From: Roseovarius sp. EL26 | GTDB taxonomy: Bacteria > Pseudomonadota > Alphaproteobacteria > Rhodobacterales > Rhodobacteraceae | Length of the DNA: 64,000 nt | Direction of reading: 5' to 3' | Assembly: GCF_900327775.1 (NCBI RefSeq) | Contig: NZ_OUMZ01000007.1 | Span: 2,177,428-2,241,427 of the forward strand | Part shown: piece after piece, positions 28,332-47,075 of the stretch | Layout of the letters: each line of letters starts with the position of its first letter | How positions within the stretch are numbered: the stretch's first letter is position 1 | Notes under the pieces: generated by a model | The model's input: only the letters and a program-made list of their open reading frames with translations | Told to the model about the DNA's origin: nothing | Databases searched by the model: none | Program-made: the position numbers and the translations under genes

Positions 28332-29329
28332 ACCAGATGATCGATAGCCATGACCCTCAGTCAATCATGCAGAAATTGCGTTCGAAGTACTTCAAAACAC
28401 AACGGCATCGCCAAATTCAGCGCGAGTTGGATCGACTTTTGAGCGTCGATGAGAGAGACCCTCAGATTGCCGTTCCCGTTCGCTTCACTGACAATCTGGA
28501 GACCAAGGGGTTCTTGATCGCGGCTAAATCAGGCGATGGGAAGACAACCGCTATTGCAAGAGTGCTCAGGCAACATCCTGCACTAGGGGAAGCAAATGAC
28601 GCCAGTTCTCCAAAATATGTGAGGATCATAGTTCCTAGTCCGGCGACACTAAAAAGCCTCGGGAAAGCGATTTTGGCGGCACTTGGCGTAACAGGGGTTT
28701 CGGATCGCACTTCAGCTATGGATATCTGGAGCGCTATTGGGCACCGGCTAAAATTACTCGGTATCGTGGTGCTGTGGATTGACGAAGCTCAAGACGTTTT
28801 CCTTTCTAAGTCCGCTCGAGAAATCGACGACATGCTGAAAACTCTGAAGTCATTAATGCAGGGAGACGGGGCCGTCATCGTCATTTTGAGCGGTACAGAT
28901 CGCTTGCTTGATGTAGCTCGATACGACCAGCAAGTTGATCGCCGATTTCGAAAAGTTGTCACCGCTCCTCTAGCCATTGGGCACGACGAGCCGAAAATTT
29001 TGCAGTTGGTCGAGACGTATTGTGAACTCGCGAGGCTAAAGCCACAAATTGACCAAAACGCAATCATGCGTCTAATTCATGGCAGTCGATTTAGGTTCGG
29101 AAGAGCCATCGAAATCATTCTGGCTGCCATTGAAAGCGCTTTGTACGATGAAAGCTCTACCCTTAGCATTCAACATTTTGCCGAAGCCTGGACCATTCAG
29201 GAGGCGTGTTCTTGGGACCAAAACGTTTTTGTTTGCAAAGATTGGGCGTCACTGGATCTGGATGCTGAAGCTGATGAGTTTGAAGGGGAACGAACATCTC
29301 GGCAGCGCCGGCAAGTAGGGCGGGGATAA
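28328..29329 (+). CDS. tnsC: TnsC/TniB-type AAA+ ATPase
   Basis: A 333-residue AAA+ regulator. The Walker A motif is KSGDGKTT (K72) and Walker B is LWIDEAQD (D152-E153). This protein links the target selector to the transposase and gives target immunity. It is much shorter than Tn7 TnsC and closer to TniB in length. Coupled translation with tnsB (ATGA) and a 4-bp gap to tniQ indicate one operon. Confidence 0.9.
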   Translation: MNQMIDSHDPQSIMQKLRSKYFKTQRHRQIQRELDRLLSVDERDPQIAVPVRFTDNLETKGFLIAAKSGDGKTTAIARVLRQHPALGEANDASSPKYVRIIVPSPATLKSLGKAILAALGVTGVSDRTSAMDIWSAIGHRLKLLGIVVLWIDEAQDVFLSKSAREIDDMLKTLKSLMQGDGAVIVILSGTDRLLDVARYDQQVDRRFRKVVTAPLAIGHDEPKILQLVETYCELARLKPQIDQNAIMRLIHGSRFRFGRAIEIILAAIESALYDESSTLSIQHFAEAWTIQEACSWDQNVFVCKDWASLDLDAEADEFEGERTSRQRRQVGRG

Positions 29330-29333
29330 AACA

Positions 29334-31874: not shown

Positions 31875-32201
31875 GAAAACATCATGCGGTTTTGTAACCG
31901 CCCTTCCGTTTCGACATCACAGATGGATGCCGCGATGCTGGAAAACATGTGGAAGGTGGTTGGCCCGGAAGACCAGCTATGGATTATGGGCGACTTCGCT
32001 TTTGGTTCCAAAGCCAAGGACAGCGTTTATGTTGAGCAGATATTCAATCAGTTGCCGGGTGCTGAGCGTCATCTGGTCGTTGGCAACCATGATCACAAGC
32101 CAACACTGGAACTTCCCTGGGATTCTATCTCGCACTTCGTTGAATTGCAGGATGGACCTCAGAACCAGCTAAATACGTTGTGCCACTACGCTCGGGATTG
32201 A
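31836..32201 (+). pseudogene. 3'-truncated metallophosphoesterase
   Basis: A 121-residue frame beginning MTIWYTADTHFGHENIMRF. The family metal motifs D-x-H (TADTHFGH), GDF (IMGDFAFG) and GNHD (VVGNHDHKP) are present. The protein ends abruptly after NTLCHYARD; relatives continue with about 50 residues carrying the last GH-x-H metal ligands, so activity is doubtful. The downstream sequence is unrelated. It looks like a gene fragment left by the same rearrangement that broke the XRE gene at its 5' side. Confidence 0.7.
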
Positions 32202-32833
32202 TTGGGGCATAGATCCCACACGTTTTGACGGGGAGCCGGATACAGATTGCCGAGGCGCCCTTGTGACTGGAAGCAATTGCGAAAGTTGCCCCAGCAAAGG
32301 CCTGCTTCGTACCGCAGACTACCAGTTCGCAGATTGCCCGATTTCGCGCGTGCAGCGAATGTCACCTCTGGCTGACCGCGCCGCAGCATCTTGACAGGTT
32401 GGCCAACGGCACCAACGGGCCGCGGCCCAACAGGCTGAATTTTCCGCACGTTCGATACGCTGCGGGACAGCATTTGAAAATATGGGCTCTCCCGGCACCT
32501 TCGCCGCGCTGGTCATGAGTGGCCGGTTCGGGAAATAACGGCATTCGCTGCGTGCTGTCTGAACTGGTAAGGTGCGGACATAGCGAGCCTTTGTTGCGCA
32601 AACACGAACGGCTGTTTAGATGGCATTTTCGCCATCCACTCTAAATTGGTTTGCAGCCATTTTTTCAATGACAACTTGGCCTTTTACGTAACTTTTTCAT
32701 TGATTGAATGTGGGCAATCATTACCGCGAGCAACCGTGAATTGTAAGGCCTAAGTACTTTTCGGAGGGTCATTTTTACGCAATGAACATCAACGGCAAAG
32801 CCTCAATTTATCATATAATAAGTTCGTCCAATA
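32202..32833. other. 630-bp gap of decayed sequence
   Basis: I see no supported gene. A short hairpin GATGGC-ATTTTC-GCCATC lies at 32619-32636. The stretch separates the mobile-element wreckage from the catabolic operon that ends at 32834. Confidence 0.5.
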
Positions 32834-33730
32834 CTAACCTTTTACGACATCGATGGGTCCTGTGTAGGCGGGCACAGATTCAGTTCTCAGATGCACTTCG
32901 CCGGATTTTTTGACGGAACGAACGTATGCAGCAATCTCCTCCATCGGAGCAAACCAAGTTTCACCAGCGGTGACTTCTTGTTCAAGAAATTCTGCGAACA
33001 CTTCCCACCGGGCCAAACGGCCCGTAGCAAAAGGATGCACGACCGGCACCCATAGGCCGCCGTATTTTTTGATGACTTGATATTCCTGGCGGAATGCATC
33101 GAAACCGGTACGTGGTGCACGGATCGGCATCATGTAGTCAAGATCGGCAGATTGCACATATTGCGGCCAGTCATCCAAGCCCCAGTGGGTAGGTAACTCA
33201 ACCAGGGAACCATTATCGGTCTTCAGAATGTAAGGGATATCATCGCCCATCAGCGAGGCATCGTACTGAAAGCCCCGGTCGACCAACAACGCGGGTGATA
33301 CGTCAGAAATATTGTAAAGTGGTGCGCGCCAGCCGCGTGGGCGCTGGCCCGTGGCTTTTTCGATCACGGCAATTCCACGGTCAAGCCAATAGGCTTCTTC
33401 TTCGGGTGGGAGTTCGTTGGGATGTTCATGCAGATAACCATGATGGGCTATCTCGTGCCCGCCTTCGAGAATGATCTCTATCGCTTCGGGATAGTTTTCA
33501 ATGCACCAAGCTGGGATGTAAAAAGTTTGGCGAATGCCAAGCTTGCGGTAAGTTTCAACGATGCGCGCGATAGCCACCTTGGGCCCGTATTGAAGCATTG
33601 AAATGCCAGACAACCGCCGATGTCCGTCATTTGGATGCGCGATGTGGATCAGACTGTCCGCATCCATATCAAATGTTACACAGGCCGCACATTTTGCGTC
33701 GTTTGGCCACGGAATTGGATTCTTGATCAT
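32834..33730 (-). CDS. CE4-family (polysaccharide deacetylase-like) hydrolase
   Basis: A 298-residue NodB-fold metal hydrolase. VTFDMDAD supplies the catalytic and metal Asp residues, and HEIAHHGYLHEHP the metal His pair. The pattern resembles the subgroup containing allantoinase PuuE, cyclic imidase and Helicobacter PgdA rather than chitin deacetylases. There is no signal peptide, which supports a cytoplasmic C-N hydrolase acting on a small molecule. The ATG at 33730 overlaps the SDR stop (ATGA). It is the last gene of the 11-gene operon starting at 41564. A cyclic amide or imide intermediate is a reasonable guess for its substrate. Confidence 0.75.
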   Translation of the reverse strand: MIKNPIPWPNDAKCAACVTFDMDADSLIHIAHPNDGHRRLSGISMLQYGPKVAIARIVETYRKLGIRQTFYIPAWCIENYPEAIEIILEGGHEIAHHGYLHEHPNELPPEEEAYWLDRGIAVIEKATGQRPRGWRAPLYNISDVSPALLVDRGFQYDASLMGDDIPYILKTDNGSLVELPTHWGLDDWPQYVQSADLDYMMPIRAPRTGFDAFRQEYQVIKKYGGLWVPVVHPFATGRLARWEVFAEFLEQEVTAGETWFAPMEEIAAYVRSVKKSGEVHLRTESVPAYTGPIDVVKG

Positions 33731-34464
33731 GGCATGACACTCCCACCATTGATGCCGACCCCCTGGCCGGTGATGAAGCTCGCCATGTCGCTGCCTAAAA
33801 ACAGTGCCATATGTGCGATTTCTTCTGCAGAACCAAATCGCGCCGCAGGAATATCCAACTCTTTTTGCCGCCATTTCTCAGTCATCTGTTCGGCCCCCAG
33901 CATTTCTGTATCAATAGGACCAGGGCATAAAGCATTTACCTGAATGTCAGGCGAGAACTCCTTGGCCCAGGATCGAACCAATCCCATGACACCGTGTTTT
34001 GAGGCGACATAGGGCGAAAATGTCTCGCGTCCGGAATAGCCCAGATCCGACGAGGTCAGGATCACCCGGCCTGATCGGCTGTGCATTTGGCGGATCGCGG
34101 CTTGTCCCACCAGAAAACTGCCGCGCAGGTTGACGGCGATCACCTTGTCGAACTCGGCCGCCGGCGTATCAAGTAGCGGGCGTTCGTGAATGACACCAGC
34201 GCAATGCACCACAACATCCACAGCCCCTTGGTGGGACTGCAATTGGTTCATCATTTCGACGACCGACACTTCATCAGCAACATCGCATTGAATGCCAGCG
34301 GCCGTGCCGCCAGCCTGTGTGATCTGTTCAACCGTAGACGTCGGGTTTTTCAAGTCCGCACACAGGACTTTTGCACCGGCAGCGGCATAAGCCTTCGCGA
34401 CGGCAGCCCCGATGCCGCCATAGGCCCCTGTCACAAGGACAGATTTTCCTGCAATGCCGATCAT
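33727..34464 (-). CDS. short-chain dehydrogenase/reductase (SDR) 1
   Basis: A 245-residue NAD(P)-dependent oxidoreductase. The cofactor motif TGAYGGIG is near residue 13 and the catalytic Tyr/Lys pair is in YVASK. The C-terminus GQGVGINGG is typical. The start at 34464 overlaps the stop of SDR 2, with GAGGTG upstream. It likely oxidises a hydroxyl intermediate of the operon pathway. It is related to, but not a recent duplicate of, the adjacent SDR. Confidence 0.85.
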   Translation of the reverse strand: MIGIAGKSVLVTGAYGGIGAAVAKAYAAAGAKVLCADLKNPTSTVEQITQAGGTAAGIQCDVADEVSVVEMMNQLQSHQGAVDVVVHCAGVIHERPLLDTPAAEFDKVIAVNLRGSFLVGQAAIRQMHSRSGRVILTSSDLGYSGRETFSPYVASKHGVMGLVRSWAKEFSPDIQVNALCPGPIDTEMLGAEQMTEKWRQKELDIPAARFGSAEEIAHMALFLGSDMASFITGQGVGINGGSVMP

Positions 34465-35243
34465 GCCATCACCTCGCCTCGGTCGACGTTCCACGCCTGC
34501 CCGGTGATATTTCGCGCCGCGTCTGACGCCAGATAAAGATAGATTGAAGCCATATCCTGCGGCTCTAACAGCCCGCCAATCACTTGCGCACCGGTGATCT
34601 CATCCAGAAGTTCTTCTTCGCTGCGCCCGCTTTGAAGCGACATGTTTTTCAAGGAAAGCATCGAGGCTTCGGTTCTAACCCAACCGGGGCAAACCGCATT
34701 AACCGTAATTCCTCTGGGTCCAAGTTCCTTCGCGATGGATCGCATGAAGCCGAGATTTGCATGTTTGGTGCAGCAATAGGCGGAAAACTCGGGTACAGCT
34801 GTGCGACTCCAGATCGATCCGGTCAGGATAATCCGCCCGCCAGAATCCATTTTAGATACGCTGTGGCGAGTCATCAGGAAGGTGCCCATTATGTTAATGT
34901 CAACAATCCTGCGAAACATGTTCTCGACGGCCGGATCATCATCCAGCAGGGGCGTAATCCGCTCCAGCCCGGCATTGTTGATAAGCACATCGATCCGGTC
35001 TATCTGCGAAAGCGCACGCTGCACGCCAGCAGAGTCGGTTATATCGCATTCGATCCCAGCTACAGTGGCACCGCTTTGCGCGCTCAGTCGGGCGGCGGAC
35101 TGTTTCACCTGCGGATCGTCAGCCAACAGCGTCACGTTGGCCCCAGCGGCAGCAAAACCTTCGGCGATGCCAAATCCGATGCCCCTGCTGCCACCGGTGA
35201 CCAAAACTGTTTTGCCAGAAAAATTGTTGTGAAGTTCAGTCAT
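34461..35243 (-). CDS. short-chain dehydrogenase/reductase (SDR) 2
   Basis: A 260-residue SDR with the cofactor motif TGGSRGIG, NNAG (INNAGLER) and catalytic YCCTK. The ATG at 35243 overlaps the ureohydrolase stop by 8 bp. Two SDRs side by side suggest two successive or alternative dehydrogenation steps on hydroxylated intermediates. The substrate cannot be read from the sequence. Confidence 0.85.
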   Translation of the reverse strand: MTELHNNFSGKTVLVTGGSRGIGFGIAEGFAAAGANVTLLADDPQVKQSAARLSAQSGATVAGIECDITDSAGVQRALSQIDRIDVLINNAGLERITPLLDDDPAVENMFRRIVDINIMGTFLMTRHSVSKMDSGGRIILTGSIWSRTAVPEFSAYCCTKHANLGFMRSIAKELGPRGITVNAVCPGWVRTEASMLSLKNMSLQSGRSEEELLDEITGAQVIGGLLEPQDMASIYLYLASDAARNITGQAWNVDRGEVMA

Positions 35244-36207
35244 TGTTGCGCTCGCCACGGTGATGCAGCATCCGCCCGATCGTGTTCATCAGTATCTGAG
35301 CGGCTAGGATGGATGTGGTACCCGTGTGGTCGTAATCCGGGGCAACCTCAACCAAATCAAGCCCAACGATATTGCCCCGTTTGCACAGCCCATCAAACAG
35401 CTCCAGCACCTCATAATAGAGAAAACCGCCATGGCTGGGCGTTCCGGTGCCCGGCGCGATGGAGGGGTCGAACCCGTCAATGTCGATAGTCACGTAATAA
35501 CGTACGCCTTCGGGAATACGTGACAGTACATTGCCCACGCCTAGTTTGCGGAATTGCCGGACGCTTAGGATGTCTGACCCCATAGCGCGGGCATCGTCAT
35601 AGCCGTCTTTCGCAGTGGACGAGACATTACGAATACCAATCTGGCTGAGCCCTGTGACATAAGGCTTTTCAGCCGCGCGGCGCATGGGGTTTCCATGACC
35701 ATAGCGCACGCCGTGGCGTTCATCGACAAAGTCCAGATGCGCGTCGATCTGAACGATATGAATGGGTTCCTGATCATCAAAGGCGTTGACACAGGGGATA
35801 TTGATTGAATGATCTCCGCCCAGAGTGATCGGAATGGCACCAGCTTTGAGTATCTGACGCACGCCATATTCGATATTGGCGTGGCTTTTGATTGTATCGG
35901 TGTGCACGATGTCTGCATCGCCGATATCGACGATATTTATCTCACCGGCAGGCAGATAAGTTATATCGCCCTCGTGGTCATAAGCCCCGCCATGGCCAAA
36001 TGAGAACAAAGTCGATGCCTCACGGATGGCGCGTGGACCGAAACGTGCTCCAGACCGAAACTGGGTGCCAAAATCGAATGGTGCTCCCAGAATTGCCACA
36101 TCGGCGTCAATTGCATCCCAGTCCTGAACATAAGAGTTTTTGCCAAAAGTCGAAATGCCGACAAATGGCAGGTCCAGCCGACCTGATTCATATCCGTGTT
36201 CACTCAT
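35236..36207 (-). CDS. speB: ureohydrolase, agmatinase family (operon copy)
   Basis: A 323-residue ureohydrolase with a complete two-metal site: H133 (GGDHS), D155/H157/D159 (IDAHLDFVD) and D242/D244 (IDIDGFDP). It releases urea from a guanidino compound. It is encoded directly after the ABC importer ATPase gene, so the imported amino acid probably carries a guanidino group. It is clearly distinct from the copies at 5944 and 15345. The symbol denotes family only; the substrate may well not be agmatine. Confidence 0.85.
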   Translation of the reverse strand: MSEHGYESGRLDLPFVGISTFGKNSYVQDWDAIDADVAILGAPFDFGTQFRSGARFGPRAIREASTLFSFGHGGAYDHEGDITYLPAGEINIVDIGDADIVHTDTIKSHANIEYGVRQILKAGAIPITLGGDHSINIPCVNAFDDQEPIHIVQIDAHLDFVDERHGVRYGHGNPMRRAAEKPYVTGLSQIGIRNVSSTAKDGYDDARAMGSDILSVRQFRKLGVGNVLSRIPEGVRYYVTIDIDGFDPSIAPGTGTPSHGGFLYYEVLELFDGLCKRGNIVGLDLVEVAPDYDHTGTTSILAAQILMNTIGRMLHHRGERNND

Positions 36208-36236
36208 GAAGCTCGTCCTATCTTCTAATGTCTGTG

Positions 36237-36995
36237 CTATTTGAAGTCTGAGATGAAGTTTGCGAAAACCTCAGTATCGGGGTTCGTAAACATTTTTTGG
36301 GGTGCACCGCGCTCTGCTATTTCCCCCTGATGAAGAAACACAACCTCGGTGGATACATCCCGGGCAAATGCCATTTCATGGGTCACGATGATCATCGTAC
36401 GGCCTTCACCAGCCAGTTCTTTCATAACCTTCAGAACTTCGCCAACTAGTTCCGGGTCAAGCGCTGAAGTTGGTTCGTCAAAGAGGATCGCATCTGGTTC
36501 CATTGCCAATGCCCGTGCAATGGCAACCCGTTGCTGTTGCCCCCCGGACAGGGCGGAGGGATACATCTCCATTCGCTCGCTCAAACCGACGCGGTTCAGA
36601 ATGTGTTCGGCCTCTTCGCGTGCTTCCTGCCTGCTTTTTTTCAGTACCTGGACAGGTCCTTCCATGACGTTTTCGATGACGGTCCGGTGGGTCCACAAAT
36701 TAAACTGTTGAAACACCATACCAAGGCGTTGTCGTAGCCGTTCTATGGCCTTCCGGTCTGCCGGTTTTCCATCCTTGAACGCGATCTCTTCGCCATGAAC
36801 GTGGATGCGCCCACCAGAGGGAACTTCGAGTGCGTTCAGGCAACGCAGAAATGTGCTTTTGCCTGAACCGCTTGATCCCAATATCGAAATTACATCGTGT
36901 GCATTGGCTGTCAGGTCGATCCCCTTCAGTACTTCTATGGCCCCAAAGGATTTCCGAATGCCTTCGGCCTTTACGACTGCGTCTTGTTCTTGCAT
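36237..36995 (-). CDS. amino-acid ABC transporter ATPase (HisP/OccP type)
   Basis: A 252-residue ABC ATPase. The Walker A motif is GSSGSGKST (from residue 40), the signature LSGGQQQR, and Walker [13 protein letters not shown]. Phe in [17 protein letters not shown] is typical of the polar amino-acid (PAAT) subclass. It energises the two permeases encoded just upstream. GGGGGA precedes the ATG. Confidence 0.93.
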
Positions 36996-37006
36996 GAGAT
37001 TTCCCC

Positions 37007-37705
37007 CTACACGCGGTCAGATTTGAAAAACTGTGGATTCAGTAAAATTTCTGCACGACACCAAACCCAAACAAGGACTGCCGTCAAAGCCAGATAAAGC
37101 AACGCTGCCCAGAGATAGGCCGACAAATCGAAGGTCTTCGAAAAGATCAGCCGGGTTTCACCCAGAAGATCGAAGATTGTGACTACACTTGCCAGAGCGC
37201 TGGCCTTGACTAACAGGATGACCTCGTTACCAAGTGCTGGCCAGGCGATACGATAAGCGTGTGGAAAGATCACTCGGCGGTAGCGTGTAATTGGTGACAT
37301 ACCAACAGCTTTCGCAGCTTCGATTTCGCCATAGGGAACCCCCATAAGGCCTCCGCGCAAAATCTCGATTTGGTAAGCGGTGGAACTGATGACAAAGGTC
37401 AGCATCGCACAGTTGTAGGGCTCTCTGAATAACGACCACAGCCCCCAGTCCTGCAGGAACGGTCTGAACTGTCCTGAGCCGTAGTAGATCAGGAACAACT
37501 GTGCCAGCATCGGGGTGCCGCGAATAAAAGAGACATAGACGCGCACTGGAACGCTGAACATTGCAGGACCATTCAGTCGCACCAACGCCAACCCCGGCGC
37601 GATGATCGCCGCCAAAATCGCGCCAATCCCTGCCAGTTGGATCGTGACCCAAAGCCCTTCCAGGTATTTCGGCCAATATTGTATGAGCAGCTCAATCGGG
37701 TTCAT
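37007..37705 (-). CDS. amino-acid ABC transporter permease (HisM/OccM type)
   Basis: A 232-residue inner-membrane permease. The EAA loop [32 protein letters not shown] identifies the PAAT family. The ATG at 37705 has GGAGG upstream and overlaps the preceding permease stop (ATGA). It forms a heterodimeric channel with the permease at 37702-38409. Confidence 0.92.
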
Positions 37706-38409
37706 GCGCCTGCCCTCCGTACACCGCGATTGGCTCGGCGTTCCAATTTCGCTAACCCGACCTCGGAGGCAAGGCACAGAACCCAATATATCAGGCAGGC
37801 TGCCAGATAGAAGTTAAACGGAAGTTTTGTGAAACCGGCGGCAACCTTAGTCATGCGCATCAGATCGTCGAGCGCGATGACCGAGACAAGTGCCGTGTCT
37901 TTCAAAAGATTGATCCAAAGGTTGCCAAGCCCAGGTAGAGCAAACCGCCAGACTTGAGGAACTTTGACACGTATGAAAATCTGCCACCGTGTCATGCCGA
38001 TGGCTTGAGCTGCCTCGGTCTGACCCGGGTCAAGCGATTGAAACGCCCCGCGCAGAACCTCGGCCGCAAACGCACCAAACACCATGCCAAGTGCAATAAC
38101 GCCTGCCGCCATTGGCGAGAACTCTACCGGTTCAGCGCCCATCGTACTCATAATCGCGTTCAGAAGAATCCCTGCGCCATTATAAATCACGAACAGTGTT
38201 AGAATTTCAGGCAGGCCGCGCATTGTCGTTGTGTACAGACGCGCGCCCGCCCTTAGAGCTCTTGAGTTTGCCAAAGACATGCCGGAAAAAACGAACCCCA
38301 GCAGTAGCCCGACAGGCAGTGCTAGTATGGCAAGCTGCAGCGTGATGCCGAGGCCTGCCAATAGCTCATCTCCCCACCCCGTGTCTCCATATGCAAACAA
38401 TTCAAGCAT
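37702..38409 (-). CDS. amino-acid ABC transporter permease (HisQ/OccQ type)
   Basis: A 235-residue inner-membrane permease with the EAA loop QAIGMTRWQIFIRVKVPQVWRFALPGLGN. It is translated just after the binding protein gene (9-bp gap) and coupled to the second permease by an ATGA overlap. The pattern matches histidine, lysine/arginine/ornithine and octopine importers. Confidence 0.92.
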   Translation of the reverse strand: MLELFAYGDTGWGDELLAGLGITLQLAILALPVGLLLGFVFSGMSLANSRALRAGARLYTTTMRGLPEILTLFVIYNGAGILLNAIMSTMGAEPVEFSPMAAGVIALGMVFGAFAAEVLRGAFQSLDPGQTEAAQAIGMTRWQIFIRVKVPQVWRFALPGLGNLWINLLKDTALVSVIALDDLMRMTKVAAGFTKLPFNFYLAACLIYWVLCLASEVGLAKLERRANRGVRRAGA

Positions 38410-38418
38410 CAGATTCTA

Positions 38419-39207
38419 TCACTCAGCTTTCATGGTTCGAACATTGATATCGAAGTATTGGTCGTTGATTTCCTTGTAGGTTCCATTCTCGATGATCGTG
38501 GCAAGGGCTGCATTAATGGCCTCAACAAGATCCGTATCTGCCTGGCGGATAGCGATGCCGACACCATCCCCAACAAATTCTGGGTCCGTGATTGGGTCAC
38601 CAATGATTTCGCAACAAGCACCATCTTCGGTTTTCAACGTCCAATCTGAAAGGGGAATCGTGTCGCCCACCATCAGGTCCAACCGACCGCTTGCCATATC
38701 CAGATTGGCGTCATCCTGGCTTGCATAAAGTCGAAGGTCAGCTTGCGGATAGACCGCTTGAATAAAATCCGCCTGTGTCGTTCCGCTTTGCGCGCCAAAA
38801 GTCCTGTTAGACAGGGCCTCAGGCGAAAAGTCGGTGATGCCTGCATCTTTTGCGGCAACATAGCTCATTGCTGCCAGATAGTACGGGTCCGAGAAGGCTA
38901 CCTGCTTTTTGCGCTCTTCAGTGATGAACATCGAGGCAATCACAAAATCATATTTGTTGGCAATCAGGCCGGGAATAATTCCGTCCCAATCCTGTGCAAC
39001 CAATTCACATTCGCGACCCATCTCTTCACAAAGCGCAAGACCAATATCTACATCAAAACCAGCAAGTTGACCGGAGGAATCGATATAGTTAAAGGGGGGA
39101 AAGGCACCTTCAGTACCCAGACGCAGTGTATCCTGAGCATTGACTGCTGTAGCTGAAAGAGATGTGAGGACTGCCAGTCCTACAAGTGATTTGACGATGG
39201 TTTTCAT
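38419..39207 (-). CDS. amino-acid ABC transporter binding protein (arginine/opine-like)
   Basis: A 262-residue periplasmic protein with a Sec signal (residues 1-24, ending AVNAQD). TEGAFPPFNY, GFDVDIGLALCEEMG and QDWDGIIPGLIANKYDFVIASM-like segments place it near the LAO/ArgT and octopine/nopaline-binding proteins, which recognise basic or guanidino amino acids. GGAG precedes the ATG. It starts the transporter part of the operon. An arginine derivative is the most likely ligand. Confidence 0.88.
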   Translation of the reverse strand: MKTIVKSLVGLAVLTSLSATAVNAQDTLRLGTEGAFPPFNYIDSSGQLAGFDVDIGLALCEEMGRECELVAQDWDGIIPGLIANKYDFVIASMFITEERKKQVAFSDPYYLAAMSYVAAKDAGITDFSPEALSNRTFGAQSGTTQADFIQAVYPQADLRLYASQDDANLDMASGRLDLMVGDTIPLSDWTLKTEDGACCEIIGDPITDPEFVGDGVGIAIRQADTDLVEAINAALATIIENGTYKEINDQYFDINVRTMKAE

Positions 39208-39258
39208 GAGTTTTCTCCTCTGTCGTGGTGCCGCATCCGCGGATCTCTTTTATTGCTG

Positions 39259-39648
39259 TTAATTTGGGGGGCAGTAGGCGATGAACTCGATTTCCACCGC
39301 AGCGCCGATTGTTAGACCCGCACAAATTATCGCGCGTGCCGGGGCGTTTGATTTGAAGTACTCTGTATAGGCGGCATTAAACGCGTCGAAGTCATCCGCA
39401 TTCGGCAAGCAAACATTTGTCTTGATGACGTCTCCTAGCGTGGCACCCGCCTGTGCGAGGATACGTTTGGCATCTGCCAAGATCTGATGAGTTTCAGCGA
39501 CAACACCGCCCCGTACGATCTCAAAGTCTGCGCCAAACCCAACCAAGCCGGAAACGTAGATCATATCCCCGGCCCGGACATAGGTAGAATATGGCAAGTC
39601 TTCTTCGCTTGGCTTACCGTGCTCAATTATTTTTTTGGTTGAGTTCAT
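39259..39648 (-). CDS. RidA-family (YjgF/Rid) enamine/imine deaminase
   Basis: A 129-residue Rid protein. The catalytic Arg is in APARAIICAG and the trimer-forming C-terminus is GAAVEIEFIAY. Rid enzymes hydrolyse reactive enamine/imine intermediates, such as those released by PLP-dependent dehydratases. It follows the dehydratase gene by 3 bp, so it probably handles that enzyme's product. Length is normal. Confidence 0.9.
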   Translation of the reverse strand: MNSTKKIIEHGKPSEEDLPYSTYVRAGDMIYVSGLVGFGADFEIVRGGVVAETHQILADAKRILAQAGATLGDVIKTNVCLPNADDFDAFNAAYTEYFKSNAPARAIICAGLTIGAAVEIEFIAYCPPN

Positions 39649-39651
39649 GGT

Positions 39652-40638
39652 TCAGCTCGCTCCATTAATTGCCGATGTGAATGTGGGTAAGTCGATGTTG
39701 CGGCCGCTGATCACCACAATCGCGCGATCCGGGTTATGTTCGCGAACTTCGGGACTTAGTGCAGCGATAACCGAAGTGATTGAACCGCCCTCGACAATCA
39801 GCCCTTCGCTGTCAGCAAAGTGATGCATTTCCGGTGCCAGACTTTCTTCGGAAACAAGGACAGCCCTGTCCATGAAATCTCGTACAATCGGAAAGGTGTG
39901 AGTGTTCCGCATACCGATCGCCCCGGTAATGCAACTTGCCAGACTGGGAAATTCATCCACATGTACCGGCTTACCCGCCTCTAGGCTGCGAACCATTCCC
40001 GGTTCGATCTCCATTGACGAACCAACGACGGTCAGGTTTGGGGAAACCGATTTGGCCGCAAGTGCAATACCCGACAACAATCCTCCACCAGAAAGAGGGG
40101 CTACGATCATATCAGCGTCTGGCAGATCGGTCAGAGCCTCAAGTGCAATGGTGCCCTGCCCCGCAATAACTCTCAGGTCATCATATGGATCGGCCCAAGT
40201 GTATCCGTGTGTCTCTATCAACTGATCTGCATGGGCCTGGGCCTCGTCCTGGCTATCACCATGGACAATCACCTCGGCCCCATACGAACGCATCGCCTTC
40301 CGTTTGTTTTCGGGACAGAGATCGCACACTACAATCTTTGCCTGAATCCCAAGTTTCTTTGCCAGATAGGCAACCGCCCGTCCGTGATTACCACTTGATA
40401 CGGCAACAACACCGCGTGATTTTTCTTCTTCGGTCAGTTGTAGAATGCGGTTGGAGGCCCCCCTTAACTTGAAGCTTCCTGTGATTTGCAGATTTTCCAA
40501 TTTGAGCCAGATTTCAAAACCAGCGCGTTCAGATAAAACTTCGGAAAACACCAAGGGTGTGCGACGAATGATCGGCGTTATCCGTTGATGCGCCGTCATG
40601 ATATCCTGCAGCGCCAGAAATTTGGCAGGGACCCTCAT
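39652..40638 (-). CDS. PLP-dependent threonine/serine dehydratase-family enzyme
   Basis: A 328-residue fold-type II PLP enzyme. The Schiff-base Lys is K57 (GSFKLRGASN), the phosphate loop is LSGGGLLSG, and SSGNHGRAVAY is conserved. It lacks the regulatory ACT domain of biosynthetic IlvA, so it is catabolic. Relatives act on threonine, serine, 3-hydroxyaspartate or hydroxyectoine-pathway intermediates. The ATG at 40638 overlaps the DapA-like stop. With RidA next to it, it likely removes ammonia from a beta-hydroxy amino acid intermediate. Confidence 0.85.
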   Translation of the reverse strand: MRVPAKFLALQDIMTAHQRITPIIRRTPLVFSEVLSERAGFEIWLKLENLQITGSFKLRGASNRILQLTEEEKSRGVVAVSSGNHGRAVAYLAKKLGIQAKIVVCDLCPENKRKAMRSYGAEVIVHGDSQDEAQAHADQLIETHGYTWADPYDDLRVIAGQGTIALEALTDLPDADMIVAPLSGGGLLSGIALAAKSVSPNLTVVGSSMEIEPGMVRSLEAGKPVHVDEFPSLASCITGAIGMRNTHTFPIVRDFMDRAVLVSEESLAPEMHHFADSEGLIVEGGSITSVIAALSPEVREHNPDRAIVVISGRNIDLPTFTSAINGAS

Positions 40639-41564
40639 CGCATTGTTCCCAGGCCAGCCGGGAAATGGGGCGAAAACGGTACCACCATTTCCGAAAGTTG
40701 CTGGCAACGCGCCTCCGGCAATGTTTCGAGCGGCGGCCGAACCAGACGCCAGTTCTCATCACCAGAGGCATTCGCAACAATGTCTTTGACCGCTTCGCTG
40801 ATTGGAAACTTCAGCAACGTTTCTTCCCAAAGCCGAACAAGCAAATCTTGTGCCTCTTGCGCCATTGGAGTGTTTTCTGACCATTCGGCATATACGCGCG
40901 CCAGAAGATTGGGCGTCAGATTCGCCGTCGCCGTAATTGCGCCATGGCCGCCTTCTTGCAGCAACGGCCACAACAAATTGTCATCACCCGAAAAGACCTT
41001 GAGCTGTGGGAACGTTTTTGCCAAGTAAATCATGTTTTCCAGCGACCCGGTGCTGTCCTTTATGCCCACAAAGACCTCCGGATAGCGGTCAATCAACCGA
41101 CTTATGACATTTGGATTGACAGGTGCGCCGGTTGCCTCAGGGAAATGGTAAAAGATTATATCACGCGCGCTGTCGCTCAGGCTCTCGAGCAGCTCAGAAT
41201 AGAAACCGAACACGCCGTTATCTGATGCGGGGCGGAAAAAATATGGCGGGTGAACCAGAATTCCGGCACAGCCCAGATCAAGCGCATGAGCACTGAGCAG
41301 AGCTGTATCAGCAACTGAGCAACAGCCGGTTCCAACAATCACGCTATTTGCATTAATCCCTGATGCGATCAGGGCTTCAAGCACTTCCCGACGTTCCGCC
41401 AGTCCAAACGACGCAGCTTCCCCGGTTGTTCCAAACAGCACGATCCCGTCGCAGCCATTGGCCAAAAGCCAACGGCAATGGCCGATTAGTTTACCCCGAT
41501 CAATACTGCCGTTCGCCAATAACGGAACGATACTTGCTGCGCAAACGGATGGAAGGCGTCCCAT
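40635..41564 (-). CDS. DapA/NAL-family lyase or dehydratase
   Basis: A 309-residue TIM-barrel enzyme. The Schiff-base Lys is K169 (VGIKDSTG), the catalytic Tyr is Y139 (IIFYHFP), and GTTGEAASF is the phosphate/carboxylate loop. The family includes dihydrodipicolinate synthase, N-acetylneuraminate lyase, sugar-acid dehydratases and 4-hydroxy-pyrroline-carboxylate deaminase. It is the first gene of the operon, so it is catabolic rather than for lysine synthesis. A keto acid or cyclic imine derived from the imported amino acid is the probable substrate. Confidence 0.85.
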   Translation of the reverse strand: MGRLPSVCAASIVPLLANGSIDRGKLIGHCRWLLANGCDGIVLFGTTGEAASFGLAERREVLEALIASGINANSVIVGTGCCSVADTALLSAHALDLGCAGILVHPPYFFRPASDNGVFGFYSELLESLSDSARDIIFYHFPEATGAPVNPNVISRLIDRYPEVFVGIKDSTGSLENMIYLAKTFPQLKVFSGDDNLLWPLLQEGGHGAITATANLTPNLLARVYAEWSENTPMAQEAQDLLVRLWEETLLKFPISEAVKDIVANASGDENWRLVRPPLETLPEARCQQLSEMVVPFSPHFPAGLGTMR

Positions 41565-41642
41565 AGTTCATCAATCCCCTCGAGTGTTGCGAGCATTCAA
41601 GGGAAGTTTTAGTTCGGCTAAAATCACAATTTACAAAAGTTA

Positions 41643-41661
41643 ACTTTTGCCCAGCAAAAGT
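41643..41661. promoter_or_regulatory. LysR-type operator ACTTTTGC-N3-GCAAAAGT
   Basis: A perfect 8+8 dyad with a 3-bp centre, between the LysR stop and the first gene of the 11-gene operon. It resembles the ACTTGC-N7-GCAAGT operators near 7 and 9.8 kb, whose LysR belongs to the same subfamily. It could also serve as a weak terminator for the LysR gene. Confidence 0.55.
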
Positions 41662-41666
41662 ATAGT

Positions 41667-42587
41667 TCAATCGATTGCCTGAACCTCTGTCAGGGCTTTC
41701 AGAAACATGTCCACGCGTTTGTCGTTACTGACTCTATGGTAGACAATTTTGATGTCCGTTCCGTAAGAGTAAATTTCGGGTAACAACGGCCAGATTTCGT
41801 TTTGATCGATCCAATGTTCACAAGCATGTCTAGGCAAATAGCCAAGATAAGCCCCGCTCAGAACCATCCCGAGCATTGCTTCAACTGTCGCAACAGTCGC
41901 ACTTTTGGCAAAAATTGTGGGTCTAGTTTCCTTGTGGCTATCATCAAAGTTGCGCGCGGAAAACTTCGAGCTCGACACAATAGCAGCCAACTCATCCTTG
42001 TTCTCAATTCCAAAGGCAGCATGCGTGCTTCCGCAGCACAGAAGCTGCATCTCATTGTAAATCACGACTGAATCGAGAGCACTGGAAACTTCTCGGAACG
42101 GGCCCACTGCCAAGTTTAGTTCATTGTTAAGCAACGCGCGTTCCATTTGTGGCGCGTTCATCAAAACGATATTAAAATCCACATCCGGTGCCAGGGTGGA
42201 AAATTTGCGGATAACCTTATAGATCGGGCATCGTAAATTGGTCAAAATAGCGTCGTCCATTGCAATTTTGATCTGACCTCGCAGATCCCCTCTGAAGGCG
42301 TCAATTGACTTTTCAAATTGGCTTAGGGCGTTGCTCAATGGCTTTATCTGCGAGACAACTAAATGCCCACCCTCAGTAAGCTTGAAGCCACTTCGACCGC
42401 GATCACACAACCGAAATCCCAATCGCGCTTCAAGGTTTGATATGGCGGCACTAATTGCAGGCAGGCTCATGTTCAGGCTGTACTGTGCTGACGATAACCC
42501 ACCGGCCTCGACCACATGAGCAAACACATGCAACAGCTTCAGGTCCGCATCCTGTAGCCTAGGATGATCAGAGATGCCATTTTGCAA
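41667..42587 (-). CDS. LysR-family regulator of the 11-gene operon
   Basis: A LysR protein of about 306 residues. Its HTH (LKLLHVFAHVVEAGGLSSAQ) and the LCDRGRSGFKLTEGG segment are similar to the LysR at 7118. A TTG start at 42587 is preferred because GGAAGG lies 7 bp upstream and it places the HTH at the usual distance; a GTG at 42662 would add 25 residues. It is upstream of and co-directional with the operon starting at 41564, separated by about 100 bp containing the dyad at 41643. It probably senses the operon substrate. Confidence 0.8.
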   Translation of the reverse strand: MQNGISDHPRLQDADLKLLHVFAHVVEAGGLSSAQYSLNMSLPAISAAISNLEARLGFRLCDRGRSGFKLTEGGHLVVSQIKPLSNALSQFEKSIDAFRGDLRGQIKIAMDDAILTNLRCPIYKVIRKFSTLAPDVDFNIVLMNAPQMERALLNNELNLAVGPFREVSSALDSVVIYNEMQLLCCGSTHAAFGIENKDELAAIVSSSKFSARNFDDSHKETRPTIFAKSATVATVEAMLGMVLSGAYLGYLPRHACEHWIDQNEIWPLLPEIYSYGTDIKIVYHRVSNDKRVDMFLKALTEVQAID

Positions 42588-42909
42588 AAAATTTACCTTC
42601 CATTTAGCAGTTGGATCCTCGTTTTTACACTGACCCGCACGACTCTTTATAGATTTGCACACTATCTTAATTTTTGCACTCTAAGCCAGTGATCTAAGGA
42701 TCACCTGCGTTTTGGGTGGATATGCGCGGCTGGTCTTTCAATTTTACCGACCTCTGAGGAGATTTTCAGGTCGGCTCTCTACCGTCATTCTCTGCGTTTC
42801 GCATTAATGTCTGCTATCGGGTTTAGCGTGCCAGGAGTGAAAACCCGGCTTTGGCCATTAGCAACAAAGCTGCTTTGCGTTGATCGATGAACGTGGGAAA
42901 GTCGTTGTC
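42588..42909. other. intergenic region between LysR and the exonuclease gene
   Basis: It carries the divergent promoters of both genes; no gene is seen. TTTGCAC occurs twice near 42651-42678. Confidence 0.4.
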
Positions 42910-43527
42910 ATGGCCAATGCTGCACCTTTGTCTTTACCAACCTGTTTCAATCAGGTCGAACCGCTAAGCGACAATCTCAGATTCATAGCTGTAGACGTAG
43001 AGACTGCCGGATATGACATCGCGAGCATCTGTCAAATCGGCCTGGCTTTTGTTGGGTTTGACAACTCAATTGCGACTTACAGCACTTACATCGATCCTCG
43101 CACGCCATTCGCCGCAGGCAATACGCGATTGCATGGCATTGATGCTGCAACTATCAAGAACGCCCCCAAATTTGCAGAAATATTGCCTGACCTGCGTCCG
43201 GTTCTTGAGACATATCCGCTTATTCAACATAGCCGTTACGATGAGAAAGCCTTTGATGCAGCGTGCCGACTTGCAGGACTTCAAGTGTTGAAGTCGGTAT
43301 GGTCAGACAGCGTTGCCATCGCTCGCCAAGCCTGGCCGGAGTTGCGGGGCAATGGTGGGCATGGTCTGGCCAATCTCAAAAAGGTGTTAGGGCTTCAATT
43401 CAAACACCATGATGCTGGAGAAGATGCACGTGCTGCTGCCGAAGTTACTTTGAAAGCAGAAGCATCAATGGGGCGAAAAATCAGGCTGCTGAATGCCTCA
43501 CAGCAGTTGGTCTTTGATTTTCTGTGA
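42910..43527 (+). CDS. DEDDh 3'-5' exonuclease
   Basis: A protein of about 205 residues with the DnaQ/RNase T-like exonuclease fold. Catalytic residues are D and E in VDVETAG, D in HSRYDEKAF, and H/D in HHDAGEDARAA. Small stand-alone proteins of this type trim DNA or RNA 3' ends. The ATG at 42910 is chosen; a TTG at 42880 is possible. It is not part of the neighbouring catabolic operons. Confidence 0.85.
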   Translation: MANAAPLSLPTCFNQVEPLSDNLRFIAVDVETAGYDIASICQIGLAFVGFDNSIATYSTYIDPRTPFAAGNTRLHGIDAATIKNAPKFAEILPDLRPVLETYPLIQHSRYDEKAFDAACRLAGLQVLKSVWSDSVAIARQAWPELRGNGGHGLANLKKVLGLQFKHHDAGEDARAAAEVTLKAEASMGRKIRLLNASQQLVFDFL

Positions 43528-43715
43528 TGCGAGAGGGCGACTTCGTGGGCCATAAGGCATCAGAACAACCATCAGCTCAAACTGAGGGCTCAAATTTCAT
43601 GACAAATAGTACTTAGAATTAATGTACATGCTATGTGTATTTTATGGACGCCAAAGAGTCACATTCAAATATGAGTCATAGTAAAAACAATAAGTTACAT
43701 GAGGTCAAATGGGCA
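43528..43715. other. intergenic sequence after the exonuclease gene
   Basis: No gene seen. It includes AAATGGGCAAACT (43707-43719) at the edge of repeat B copy 2. Confidence 0.4.
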
Positions 43716-43988
43716 AACTCGGGTCCATTATCTATACATAAGGTGTACATTGAGCGGCTTCACAACGATGCTTTCGGGGTGAAGCCGTCTCTATTTGAGT
43801 ATGGGGTTCGAGGAAATTTTTGGACGCGAAGATCACTCTTTGGTCACACGAAAAGCCGTACAAACCCTTTGTGGATTGCGTGATTAACGCACGAAATCAG
43901 AGTGTTAAATCCGTTCCCCAGGTGGCACAGCCTTAATGACCGCATCGAAGAAATGTTCTGCAGGAACGTCGAGAGCCCGGCTATGATG
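43716..43988. repeat. dispersed repeat B, copy 2, with XRE 3' fragment
   Basis: It matches 31413-31687 in the same orientation. It contains a perfect long-loop hairpin, CGGCTTCAC / GTGAAGCCG, at about 43752-43786. The minus-strand frame ending at 43905 encodes only RALDVPAEHFFDAVIKAVPP of an XRE regulator, so this copy carries just the gene's 3' end. No transposase is present. Confidence 0.8.
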
Positions 43989-44116
43989 ACGGGCAATGTC
44001 TTGAGGTCGGCGGCACATGGCTTTTGCGCCTAAACTCCACCAACTTAGATAAGGAGACAGAATACCCATGGTAAGGGGGTCGGGAAGCAGTCTTTCGCTG
44101 CACCTACAAATCAAAG

Positions 44117-45628
44117 CTATGCAGAGGCGTTCTTTGTTAAATGCACAAGCTGTTTTCTCTGAATTTTACCAGAAGGTCCCTTTGGCAGGTCGTCTAGGAC
44201 ATGCACTATTTCGGGGGACTTAAACTTCCCTACTTTGTCATTGCATATTTTGATTAGTCTATCTGACCCCAATTCGGAGCCTTCTTTTAGCTTAACAGCA
44301 GCTTCGACCCTTTCGCCGTAAATTTTGCAAGGTCGCGCAAAAGCAGCGGCCTCGATTACATCGGGGTGCGAATACAGGGCTTCATCGATTTCTCGGGGGG
44401 CGATGTTTTCCCCGCCTTTAATAATAAGTTCCTTCAGGCGGCCCGTGACAAAGAAATACCCATCCTCATCGACATGCCCCAAATCCCCGGTACGCAACCA
44501 ACCATCGGGCGTGAAAGTATCTTTCGTAGCCTGCGGATTGTTAAGGTATTCGCGCATCACATTTGGTCCGCGTACCGCAATTTCGCCCTGAATGTTTGGT
44601 CCCAGCGGAGTGAAGTCAGACGACAAAATACAGGCTTCGTTCCCATAGGCTTTACCAGGGGAACCAATTTTACGAATTCCGGGAGGCAAAGGGTTTGATA
44701 AAATCTGAGCAGCCGTCTCCGTCAGTCCCATGGTTTCGACAATCGGAACTTCAAATCGATTTTCAAAGCTGTTTTGAACATCGGGCGCCAGAGGTGAGCT
44801 TGCAGATCGTCCAAACCGCAATCTGTCGCGCGTTGCTTGATCGGGCGTGACGTCCGAGTGCAACAAGTGAGAAATGATAGTCGGAACAACTGAAAACCAC
44901 GTCGCTTGCGATTCAGAACATTGATTCCAGAAATTTCGAGAGGAGAACTTCTCAGCGACGGCAACAGAACCGCCTGAGATAAGGGCACTGAGTATGGTGA
45001 CGCAAAGGCCATTGATGTGGTAAATCGGAAGCACACACAATCCACAATCTTCGGATGTCAGTTTGTGCGAAACGGTGGGGGTCCAGCCCCCTGCAAGTAA
45101 ACTGGAGTGGCTGTGAACAACACCTTTGGGCCGCCCAGTTGTGCCAGACGTGTACATGAGCAATGCAGCATCTGTCGAAGATATATCATGCAGTTTGCCC
45201 GATTGGAGCGTTGGCATATCCGTCATAAGTTCCAACTTGACCGGTCGCACACGTTCAAAGAGATCAATCTGCTGATTGCCACCAAAAGCTACACGAGCAC
45301 CACAGTGACCAAGAGCATAACCAATCGCCTCGTCCCCAGCGACAAGGTTGATAATTGCTGCACAAAATCCTCCGTACAGAACGCCATAAAGGCATTCGAT
45401 AGCGTCTTGACCATTGGGTTGAAGGATCGCGACGCTTTCCCCTTTTTCCAATCCAGTTGAGGTCAAGTGCCAAGCGATGTTGCGCGCCTTATCTCGAAGG
45501 CTTGCCCATTTAAGTGGCGGGGATCCGTCAAAAAAGTGATACGCTATTGTGTCACCGGATACCGCAGCTCGATGATCTAACCAATCACGAACGGTTCCTA
45601 GGGGAGGTATCTCAGGATCAAATATCAT
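44117..45628 (-). CDS. sauT: AMP-forming acyl-CoA ligase, SauT-like (sulfoacetate-CoA ligase)
   Basis: A 503-residue ANL-superfamily ligase. The ATP loop YTSGTTGRPKG, the adenylation motif GLTETA, TGDLGHVDEDGY and the C-terminal catalytic Lys in PSGKIQRK are all present. The gene overlaps the acylating aldehyde dehydrogenase gene by ATGA. In Cupriavidus necator, SauT makes sulfoacetyl-CoA from sulfoacetate, and SauS reduces it to sulfoacetaldehyde. The pairing here supports that role but other short acids are possible. The ATG at 45628 is chosen. Confidence 0.75.
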   Translation of the reverse strand: MIFDPEIPPLGTVRDWLDHRAAVSGDTIAYHFFDGSPPLKWASLRDKARNIAWHLTSTGLEKGESVAILQPNGQDAIECLYGVLYGGFCAAIINLVAGDEAIGYALGHCGARVAFGGNQQIDLFERVRPVKLELMTDMPTLQSGKLHDISSTDAALLMYTSGTTGRPKGVVHSHSSLLAGGWTPTVSHKLTSEDCGLCVLPIYHINGLCVTILSALISGGSVAVAEKFSSRNFWNQCSESQATWFSVVPTIISHLLHSDVTPDQATRDRLRFGRSASSPLAPDVQNSFENRFEVPIVETMGLTETAAQILSNPLPPGIRKIGSPGKAYGNEACILSSDFTPLGPNIQGEIAVRGPNVMREYLNNPQATKDTFTPDGWLRTGDLGHVDEDGYFFVTGRLKELIIKGGENIAPREIDEALYSHPDVIEAAAFARPCKIYGERVEAAVKLKEGSELGSDRLIKICNDKVGKFKSPEIVHVLDDLPKGPSGKIQRKQLVHLTKNASA

Positions 45629-47028: not shown

Positions 47029-47049
47029 CTTGGAAATCTCCCTTGGTTT

Positions 47050-47075
47050 GGACAGGGCAGCAATCGGCCCCGTCC
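47050..47075. terminator. hairpin between tctC and sauS
   Basis: GGAC-A-GGGC pairs with GCCC-C-GTCC (one internal mismatch) around an 8-nt loop. It lies between the binding protein and enzyme genes and may favour the former. Confidence 0.4.

What the first reader, a model, noticed from the sequence alone, without database searches (positions are those of the whole stretch)
32834..42587. Eleven-gene LysR-associated operon that does not match a known pathway
The sequence shows an operon-like minus-strand array from 41564 to 32834, with several ATGA overlaps: DapA-type lyase, PLP dehydratase, RidA, basic-amino-acid ABC importer, intact ureohydrolase, two SDRs and a CE4 hydrolase. The LysR gene lies directly upstream. 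Known family chemistry suggests import of a guanidino amino acid, release of urea, deamination with an unstable enamine cleaned up by RidA, and retro-aldol or dehydration by the DapA-like enzyme. I know no described pathway with this set. A hydroxylated or cyclic arginine derivative (hydroxyarginine or an opine-like compound) is an inference.
Basis: partly seen in the sequence, partly recalled or inferred. Interest (0 to 1): 0.8.

Follow-up and report, generated by a model that had tools for sequence, protein, structure and literature searches.

The report
Two-part amino-acid breakdown operon
A marine bacterium seems to have joined two sets of breakdown genes, found apart in other bacteria, into one operon that probably imports an unusual arginine-like amino acid and takes it apart to pyruvate and urea; the exact food molecule is not known.

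Summary
In detail: eleven intact minus-strand genes, DapA-type to CE4 (41564-32834), four ATGA junctions, LysR upstream. Other genomes show two separable parts. Module A (LysR, DapA-like, EutB-like PLP dehydratase, RidA, basic-amino-acid ABC importer) is rare; one other full copy was found, in a Kiloniellaceae MAG, with a lactonase gene inside and a creatininase-family gene after it, and no module B beside it. Module B (ureohydrolase-SDR-SDR-CE4) is a recurrent cassette with exchangeable transporters. The three DapA-clade genomes that I searched also carry SDR-SDR-CE4, on other contigs in two of them (one of those CE4 genes has an in-frame stop). DapA and PLP enzymes form their own clades; a true eutBC pair lies elsewhere in the genome, so this is not ectoine breakdown. 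Best reading: A dehydrates and deaminates an oxygenated cationic, probably guanidino, amino acid and splits it to pyruvate plus an aldehyde; B oxidises that, opens a cyclic amide and releases urea. All reactions and the substrate are inferred. Seven library searches listed no paper that describes this gene set. Interest moderate; new variant of a known kind.

The parts
41667..42662 (-). LysR-type regulator (start 42662 GTG or 42587 TTG); module A
   Evidence: PF03466, PF00126; 50% identical LysR upstream of the module A copy in Kiloniellaceae L031
40635..41564 (-). DapA/KDG-aldolase superfamily enzyme, probable retro-aldolase; module A
   Evidence: PF00701; below the dapA NCBIfam cut-off, 154.8 vs 206.15; own clade with 100/100 support; clade-only residues H105, F110, E143, D194
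39652..40638 (-). EutB-like fold-II PLP dehydratase / ammonia-lyase (likely start 40638); module A
   Evidence: PF00291; EutB models below cut-off, 375.2 vs 413 and 335.3 vs 413.35; clade with L031 100/99, apart from the EutB rows
39259..39648 (-). RidA-family enamine/imine deaminase; module A
   Evidence: PF01042; 69% to L031
38419..39207 (-). periplasmic binding protein, lysine/arginine/ornithine type; module A
   Evidence: PF00497; TIGR01096 234.8 vs cut-off 256.35; best solved relative is an arginine-binding protein, 3tql
37702..38409 (-). ABC permease 2; module A
   Evidence: PF00528; 68% to L031
37007..37705 (-). ABC permease 1 (likely start 37705); module A
   Evidence: PF00528; 69% to L031
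36237..36995 (-). ABC ATPase; module A
   Evidence: PF00005; 72% to L031
35236..36207 (-). ureohydrolase (arginase family, TIGR01230 agmatinase above cut-off); module B
   Evidence: PF00491 276 bits; TIGR01230 186.3 vs 174.3; metal-ligand motifs intact
34461..35243 (-). SDR dehydrogenase 2 (likely start 35243); module B
   Evidence: PF13561; homologs at E<=1e-90 in 5 of 295 family genomes and 6 of 60 genus genomes, own included
33727..34464 (-). SDR dehydrogenase 1 (likely start 34464); module B
   Evidence: PF13561; ATGA overlaps on both sides
32834..33730 (-). CE4 / PuuE-type amide hydrolase (likely start 33730); module B
   Evidence: PF01522; allantoinase PuuE model 76.6 bits, below cut-off 424.6; best solved relative 3rxz

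Best explanation
A catabolic operon made by joining an 'upper' module A to a 'lower' module B. The LAO-type ABC importer brings in a cationic alpha-amino acid oxygenated at C3 and C4, most likely an arginine derivative (a 3,4-dihydroxyarginine or a beta-hydroxylated cyclic arginine). PALP removes water and ammonia from the beta-hydroxy-alpha-amino acid; RidA hydrolyses the enamine/imine; the product is a 4-hydroxy-2-oxo acid that the DapA-like enzyme splits by retro-aldol into pyruvate and a guanidino aldehyde. That aldehyde cyclises to a hemiaminal, an SDR oxidises it to a cyclic acyl-guanidine (glycocyamidine type), the PuuE-like CE4 enzyme opens the ring, and the ureohydrolase releases urea, leaving glycine or a similar amino acid. 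Shown: gene content, intact motifs, the two modules, their separate existence and their presence together in the three genomes searched. Inferred: every reaction, the order of steps, the substrate, and that the operon is substrate-induced.
For: Module A without module B beside it: L031, where an SMP-30 lactonase gene sits between the binding protein and permease genes and a creatininase-family gene follows the ATPase gene. Module B without module A beside it: 9 distinct loci with UREO-SDR2-SDR1-CE4 in order among 15 examined. The three DapA-clade genomes searched (own, G891, G774) also have SDR2-SDR1-CE4. The DapA clade gains two acidic residues (E143, D194), and the PALP clade changes EutB's SMERGAAM to SMEIEPGM, both fitting a cationic side chain. 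In Sulfitobacter a DapA 55% identical follows an imine-reductase-like OCD gene and a PLP enzyme of family PRK07324 (520.9 bits, cut-off 476) whose next best model is gamma-hydroxyarginine cyclodehydratase GntC (321 bits, below its cut-off 415). Precedent: RohR is named a retro-aldolase in the arginine-to-azomycin route (PMC10724926, passage), and Fgm3 a PLP retro-aldolase of gamma-hydroxyarginine (PMC10367076, passage). In 7 of 10 plasmid contexts the CE4 relatives stand near an NCS1 permease, a BMP transporter or a DUF1989 gene.
Against: The ureohydrolases of module B are not monophyletic and look like the widespread stand-alone enzyme, so they say little about the substrate; TIGR01230 would call this one agmatinase. 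The DapA clade occurs without PALP or ureohydrolase nearby in Sulfitobacter and G891; one Sulfitobacter plasmid has an annotated RidA-family gene about 0.4 kb away on the other strand, not recognisably like the window's at E<=1e-5. Only two complete module A copies are known, so co-occurrence rests on three genomes; in the genus sample the one informative genome would be positive by chance in 5 of 59 cases, and no base rate was measured for G774's order. The CE4 gene at G774's SDR2-SDR1-CE4 locus has one in-frame TGA near its start; a second CE4 there, beside a 70% ureohydrolase, is open. A creatininase-family gene occurs together with CE4 in the G774 genome and in L127, so 'one replaces the other' is not supported. 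The GntC link is remote. Human GDAH, a related ureohydrolase, does not hydrolyse guanidinoacetate (PMC9772407, passage). No aldehyde dehydrogenase is in the operon, and the drawn route needs only one SDR.
Confidence: 0.42

Rival explanations
1. Two unrelated catabolic modules are merely cotranscribed: module A breaks down a non-guanidino polyoxygenated amino acid (a 2-amino-2-deoxy-aldonate, dihydroxylysine or similar) to pyruvate plus an aldehyde, and module B handles its own N-heterocycle.
For: Module B occurs with at least four other transporter types. L031 has module A with an SMP-30/gluconolactonase gene inside. Two Rhizobium relatives of the wider DapA family sit in sugar-acid loci with a four-carbon acid sugar kinase and PdxA. 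The junction between the modules is a 29-nt gap, not an overlap.
Against: The three DapA-clade genomes searched also have SDR2-SDR1-CE4, although SDR2 was found in only 5 of 295 family and 6 of 60 genus genomes. Module B here has no other transporter next to it.
Confidence: 0.3
2. Hydroxyproline-like route: the ureohydrolase acts first on a dihydroxyarginine to give dihydroxyornithine; PALP gives 5-amino-4-hydroxy-2-oxovalerate, that is the cyclic Pyr4H2C; the DapA enzyme acts as Pyr4H2C deaminase to 2-oxoglutarate semialdehyde.
For: DapA-superfamily Pyr4H2C deaminases are known (recalled). This route needs no guanidino aldehyde.
Against: No 2-oxoglutarate-semialdehyde dehydrogenase in the operon. 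The only DapA homolog that the search found in the 45 kb of S. meliloti pSymB fetched is 26% identical, but that gene was not identified as the hydroxyproline deaminase. The module A copy in L031 has no ureohydrolase beside it.
Confidence: 0.12
3. A diverged ectoine/hydroxyectoine operon.
For: EutB is the closest named family of the PALP protein (45-49% identity).
Against: EutB models below cut-off; separate clade; the genome carries a eutB (76% to a Leisingera eutB) and eutC (63%) at contig C3; no DoeA, DoeB, EutA or EutC among the operon's proteins; the importer scores below the Ehu cut-offs.
Confidence: 0.03
4. Agmatine/arginine catabolism with accessory genes: the ureohydrolase is simply an agmatinase and the rest salvages side products.
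For: TIGR01230 above cut-off; arginine-binding-like SBP; the genome has a second 74% copy without module genes around it.
Against: Does not explain the rare DapA/PALP/RidA trio or the conserved SDR-SDR-CE4 run; no arginine decarboxylase in the operon.
Confidence: 0.1

Closest known systems
Ectoine/hydroxyectoine utilisation (EutABCDE / DoeAB)
   Same: EutB-type PLP dehydratase next to a small-solute importer
   Different: No EutA, EutC, DoeA or DoeB; PALP in its own clade; a true eutBC elsewhere in the genome
Azomycin biosynthesis RohP/RohR (retro-aldolase after arginine oxidation)
   Same: retro-aldol cleavage of a hydroxylated keto-arginine is proposed here too (DHDPS-family membership of RohR is recalled)
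   Different: Here in a catabolic operon with importer, dehydratase, RidA and ureohydrolase; no RohR sequence could be compared
Beta-hydroxyaspartate dehydratase BhcB and D-glucosaminate-type routes (recalled)
   Same: beta-hydroxy-alpha-amino acid dehydratase logic; 2-oxo-3-deoxy acid, then aldolase
   Different: different partner genes; the BhcB model is far below cut-off
Purine ureide pathway PuuE allantoinase
   Same: CE4-fold enzyme that acts on a small cyclic imide
   Different: this CE4 scores far below the PuuE cut-off; partners are an arginase-family ureohydrolase and two SDRs
Guanidino-compound ureohydrolases (GbuA, GpuA, S. meliloti SpeB2, human GDAH)
   Same: arginase family and metal motifs
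   Different: substrate untested; generic enzyme reused here

Membership tests
Ectoine/hydroxyectoine utilisation | EutB equivalog score | tested here: not met
   375.2 vs 413 and 335.3 vs 413.35
Ectoine/hydroxyectoine utilisation | EutC/DoeA/DoeB partners and Ehu-type importer | tested here: not met
   none among the operon's proteins; a eutBC pair at another contig
4-hydroxy-tetrahydrodipicolinate synthase (DapA) | NCBIfam cut-off and Arg at the E. coli R138 position | tested here: not met
   154.8 vs 206.15; alanine at that column
Pyruvate-dependent class I aldolase superfamily (PF00701) | Schiff-base lysine and YxxP motif | tested here: met
   GIKDS lysine 169 and Y139-HFP
RohR-type retro-aldolase | sequence clustering with RohR | not testable with these tools
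Arginase-family ureohydrolase | family profile and metal-ligand motifs | tested here: met
   PF00491 276 bits; GGDHS, DAHLD, DIDGFD
Agmatinase (TIGR01230) | equivalog cut-off | tested here: met
   186.3 vs 174.3; says nothing certain on substrate
PuuE allantoinase | equivalog cut-off | tested here: not met
   76.6 vs 424.6
Module B cassette (defined here: UREO-SDR-SDR-CE4) | four genes in this order on one strand | tested here: met
   window plus 9 distinct loci

The most novel reading that the evidence does not exclude
An undescribed catabolic pathway for a beta,gamma-oxygenated or cyclic arginine amino acid: dehydrative deamination (EutB-like PALP + RidA), retro-aldol to pyruvate and guanidinoacetaldehyde, oxidation of its cyclic hemiaminal to glycocyamidine, ring opening by a CE4 enzyme (perhaps in some genomes by a creatininase-family one), and urea release; module B being a general entry cassette for cyclic guanidines taken up by many transporter types.
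Probability: 0.15. Interest if true: 0.75.

Novelty: new variant of a known kind. Interest (0 to 1): 0.5.

Why it matters
If right, it assigns a use to a recurrent, unnamed four-gene cassette in marine and soil bacteria, links CE4 'polysaccharide deacetylases' to cyclic guanidine breakdown, and gives a route by which hydroxylated or cyclic arginines (in antibiotics, a cyanobacterial toxin and animal proteins; partly recalled) could return carbon and nitrogen. It makes the substrate question testable with one binding assay and a few purified enzymes.

Tried and rejected
Rejected: ectoine variant. Rejected: true DapA. Rejected: the ureohydrolase as a marker of the pathway; the 6 module-B rows need 5 label changes on the tree against a mean of 5.6 for shuffled labels (147 of 500 as low; the bootstrap had not settled), and 145 of 295 family genomes carry a homolog at E<=1e-130. 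Dropped on checking: creatininase-family gene as a replacement of CE4 (both occur in the G774 genome and at L127); the 94-residue L033 fragment as a further DapA-clade member (it is 97% identical to L032, which lies outside the clade).

Led nowhere: sequence link to RohR (no sequence at hand; paper searches searches gave 0 and 2 papers, and of the two I saw passages). Looking for annotated hydroxyproline genes in S. meliloti pSymB (record without annotation; the one DapA homolog found is 26% identical and its role was not identified). Riboswitch or other RNA family in 32000-44500: none at gathering threshold. Terminal inverted repeats of the neighbouring Tni module: nothing convincing. Literature for the gene set: searches returned no paper; some searches listed 15 of 16, 12 of 58, 12 of 8,163 and 8 of 17 papers, of which I saw titles and abstract starts, and passages of one each (PMC7268258, PMC9772407, PMC10367076, PMC3084791). 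None of what I saw describes the set; the library lacks most subscription journals. No paper was read whole.

Counts that lean against me: of 15 distinct module-B-type loci, six are incomplete or rearranged (L052 no SDR2; L124 no CE4 in its 3 kb contig; L104 CE4-UREO only; L105, L126, L127 with the ureohydrolase separate). The loci were chosen because they hit UREO, SDR2 or CE4, so 9 of 15 is not a frequency. In the genome searches only part of the first-look candidates per genome was scored (at most 5; 7 in 33; 9 in 41; 44 in 108). Rows dropped: L024 from the DapA tree (stop in its translation) and the L033 fragment. PALP was not searched in the genus sample, and the genomes of the two Sulfitobacter plasmids were not searched for module B.

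Full report
Observation. The eleven-gene run is real. All genes from the DapA-type gene (start 41564) to the CE4 gene (end 32834) are open, on the minus strand and tightly packed, with ATGA junctions at DapA/PALP, PERM2/PERM1, SDR2/SDR1 and SDR1/CE4, an 8-nt overlap at UREO/SDR2 and gaps of 3 to 51 nt elsewhere. Catalytic motifs are intact. LysR lies 102 nt upstream on the same strand; a terminator-like stem lies between (such matches are common in the region and prove nothing).

The operon is two modules. A scan of named genomes with the DapA protein gave 3 loci. One is a close copy, in a Kiloniellaceae MAG (L031): LysR, DapA, PALP, RidA, SBP, both permeases and the ATPase are 50-72% identical and in the same order. 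An SMP-30/gluconolactonase gene lies between the SBP and permease genes, and a creatininase-family gene follows the ATPase gene, where the window has module B; no ureohydrolase, SDR or CE4 homolog was found in the 14.9 kb held. Near these are NMT1-type ABC, NCS1 cytosine-type permease, BMP nucleoside-type ABC or APC permease genes; two loci (L070, L071) also have a polar-amino-acid ABC system close by. So module B is a portable cassette with exchangeable transporters, and the window is the only case seen in which it follows module A and its importer.

Rarity and co-occurrence. In 394 family genomes the DapA protein has no other hit better than 41% identity; the two-row profile finds 1 of 385 class genomes at E<=1e-85, the own one, and 2 of 60 genus genomes at E<=1e-75. 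Of 61 genomes in the order of the Kiloniellaceae MAG 8 have a hit at E<=1e-75, but the 7 besides the MAG are 38-42% identical to the window and lack the clade residues H105, E143 and D194. The PALP profile finds only the own genome of 394 at E<=1e-100. SDR2 occurs in 5 of 295 family genomes and 6 of 60 genus genomes at E<=1e-90, own included. The other genus genome with the DapA clade (G891) is one of these six, with the full module B on another contig. The Kiloniellaceae genome (G774) has SDR2-SDR1-CE4 on one contig, its CE4 gene with an in-frame TGA near the start, and a BMP transporter with an open CE4 and a 70% ureohydrolase on another. All three DapA-clade genomes searched thus have module B genes. 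Leaving out the own genome, the genus case alone would arise by chance in 5 of 59, and no base rate was measured for G774's order, so this is support, not proof. Two Sulfitobacter plasmids also carry the clade; their host genomes were not searched.

What the enzymes are like. The DapA proteins of the window, L031 and Sulfitobacter form a clade with 100/100 support in a tree of 36; long branches to the E. coli references make the wider placement unsure. Four residues are shared by the four clade members (G891 added) and absent or nearly so in 37 other homologs: H105 (L in 37 of 37), F110 (Y in 36, F in 1), E143 (Q in 27), D194 (S in 24). E143 sits next to the column of E. coli DapA R138 / NanA L142, a known specificity site (recalled); E. 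coli DapA itself has D at the column of D194. The DHDPS arginine is missing, and the motif YxFPxxTG is shared with the KDG aldolase YagE. Two Rhizobium relatives of the wider family sit in sugar-acid loci. In Sulfitobacter the gene follows an imine-reductase-like OCD gene and a PLP enzyme of family PRK07324 (above cut-off), whose next best model is the gamma-hydroxyarginine cyclodehydratase GntC, below cut-off; by sequence its best solved relatives are 3op7 and then 8fft, which I take to be GntC (recalled).

PALP is nearest to EutB, but the window and L031 proteins form their own clade (100/99) and differ in a conserved stretch (SMERGAAM to SMEIEPGM). The grouping of the three EutB rows themselves is weak (42/34). 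A eutB and eutC pair of this genome lies elsewhere. In the ectoine review the EutB step is described as proposed and not biochemically evaluated (PMC5924519, passages). The binding protein shares several motif positions with the arginine-binding protein 3tql (TE, the W of xWDx, ITxxR, GTT, GDT) and differs at others (SMF against GMN); their roles in ligand binding are recalled. The ureohydrolase is a generic family: 145 of 295 family genomes have a homolog at E<=1e-130, a second copy in this genome has no SDR2, SDR1 or CE4 homolog around it, and module-B members do not group together. A S. [quoted passage not shown] whether it is the ortholog was not tested.

CE4. Fifteen CE4 proteins (the window's and 14 from these loci) share 53 invariant positions, with the metal-motif residues D22, D24, H98 and H102 among them. 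In ten plasmid contexts, 5 have a DUF1989 'urea carboxylase-associated' gene, 3 an NCS1 permease close by and 2 a BMP transporter, together 7 of 10; the other three have an NMT1-type ABC (L035), an APC permease with a sugar ABC system farther on (L070), and a hydroxylase, a deacylase and an amino-acid ABC (L073). PuuE allantoinase is a precedent for this fold acting on a small cyclic imide, while the related HP0310 was inactive on allantoin (PMC3084791, passages).

Mechanism. The combination of a 2-amino-3-hydroxy-acid dehydratase, RidA and a class I pyruvate aldolase reads as dehydrative deamination followed by retro-aldol cleavage to pyruvate and an aldehyde. Module B reads as alcohol or hemiaminal oxidation, cyclic amide opening and urea release. 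Joined, they fit a guanidino amino acid oxygenated at C3 and C4. A retro-aldolase in the arginine-to-azomycin route (RohR) and a PLP retro-aldolase of gamma-hydroxyarginine (Fgm3) are in print (PMC10724926 and PMC10367076, passages), so guanidinoacetaldehyde is a fair candidate for the junction compound. A creatininase-family gene in L031 and one beside the module-B locus L127 (27% identical) hint at creatinine-like rings, but both genomes also have CE4, so replacement is not shown. This last part is inference and I give it about one in seven.

Known or new. None of the papers listed in seven searches of the held library describes the gene set, as far as titles, abstract starts and passages tell; subscription journals are mostly missing from it. 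The parts belong to known families; the assembly and the module-B cassette appear undescribed. The genus is that of Roseovarius sp. THAF9, inferred from the same-genus genome G868 having a contig of the same length (135260) as pTHAF9_b and identical transporter proteins.

Noticed in passing
window 25390-31172: TniA-like transposase (26067-28331), TniB (28328-29329) and TniQ (29334-31172), preceded by an unassigned 226-aa gene, end 1.7 kb from the operon; the operon may be cargo of a Tn7-like element, but no convincing terminal repeats were found.
   Followed up: partly
window 44117-50079: Acylating sulfoacetaldehyde dehydrogenase SauS (672.5 bits, cut-off 600), an AMP-binding acyl-CoA ligase and TctA/TctC transporter genes: a likely sulfoacetate-use locus next door.
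   Followed up: no
L072, L074, L075, L076, L077: A second recurrent CE4 cassette: CE4 about 47-53% identical with a DUF1989 gene in all five, an amidase and an NAD(P)H-dependent oxidoreductase in four; nearby BMP, NCS1, polyamine-type or branched-chain-type transporters; substrate unknown.
   Followed up: no
L034 8900-11912 and L089 5900-8912: Three-gene Sulfitobacter plasmid operon: OCD, PRK07324 (GntC/VioD-like) PLP enzyme, DapA clade member; the same protein accessions on two plasmids.
   Followed up: partly
G774 (genome of L031): Eleven arginase-family matches at E<=0.001 in one Kiloniellaceae genome; whether that number is unusual was not tested.
   Followed up: no
L127 12129-13824: A creatininase-family gene (27% to the one in L031) directly beside a 79% ureohydrolase, 3.7 kb from an SDR2-SDR1-CE4 run.
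   Followed up: no
window 41643-41661: Terminator-like stem between LysR and dapA, suggesting that LysR may be transcribed separately.
   Followed up: no
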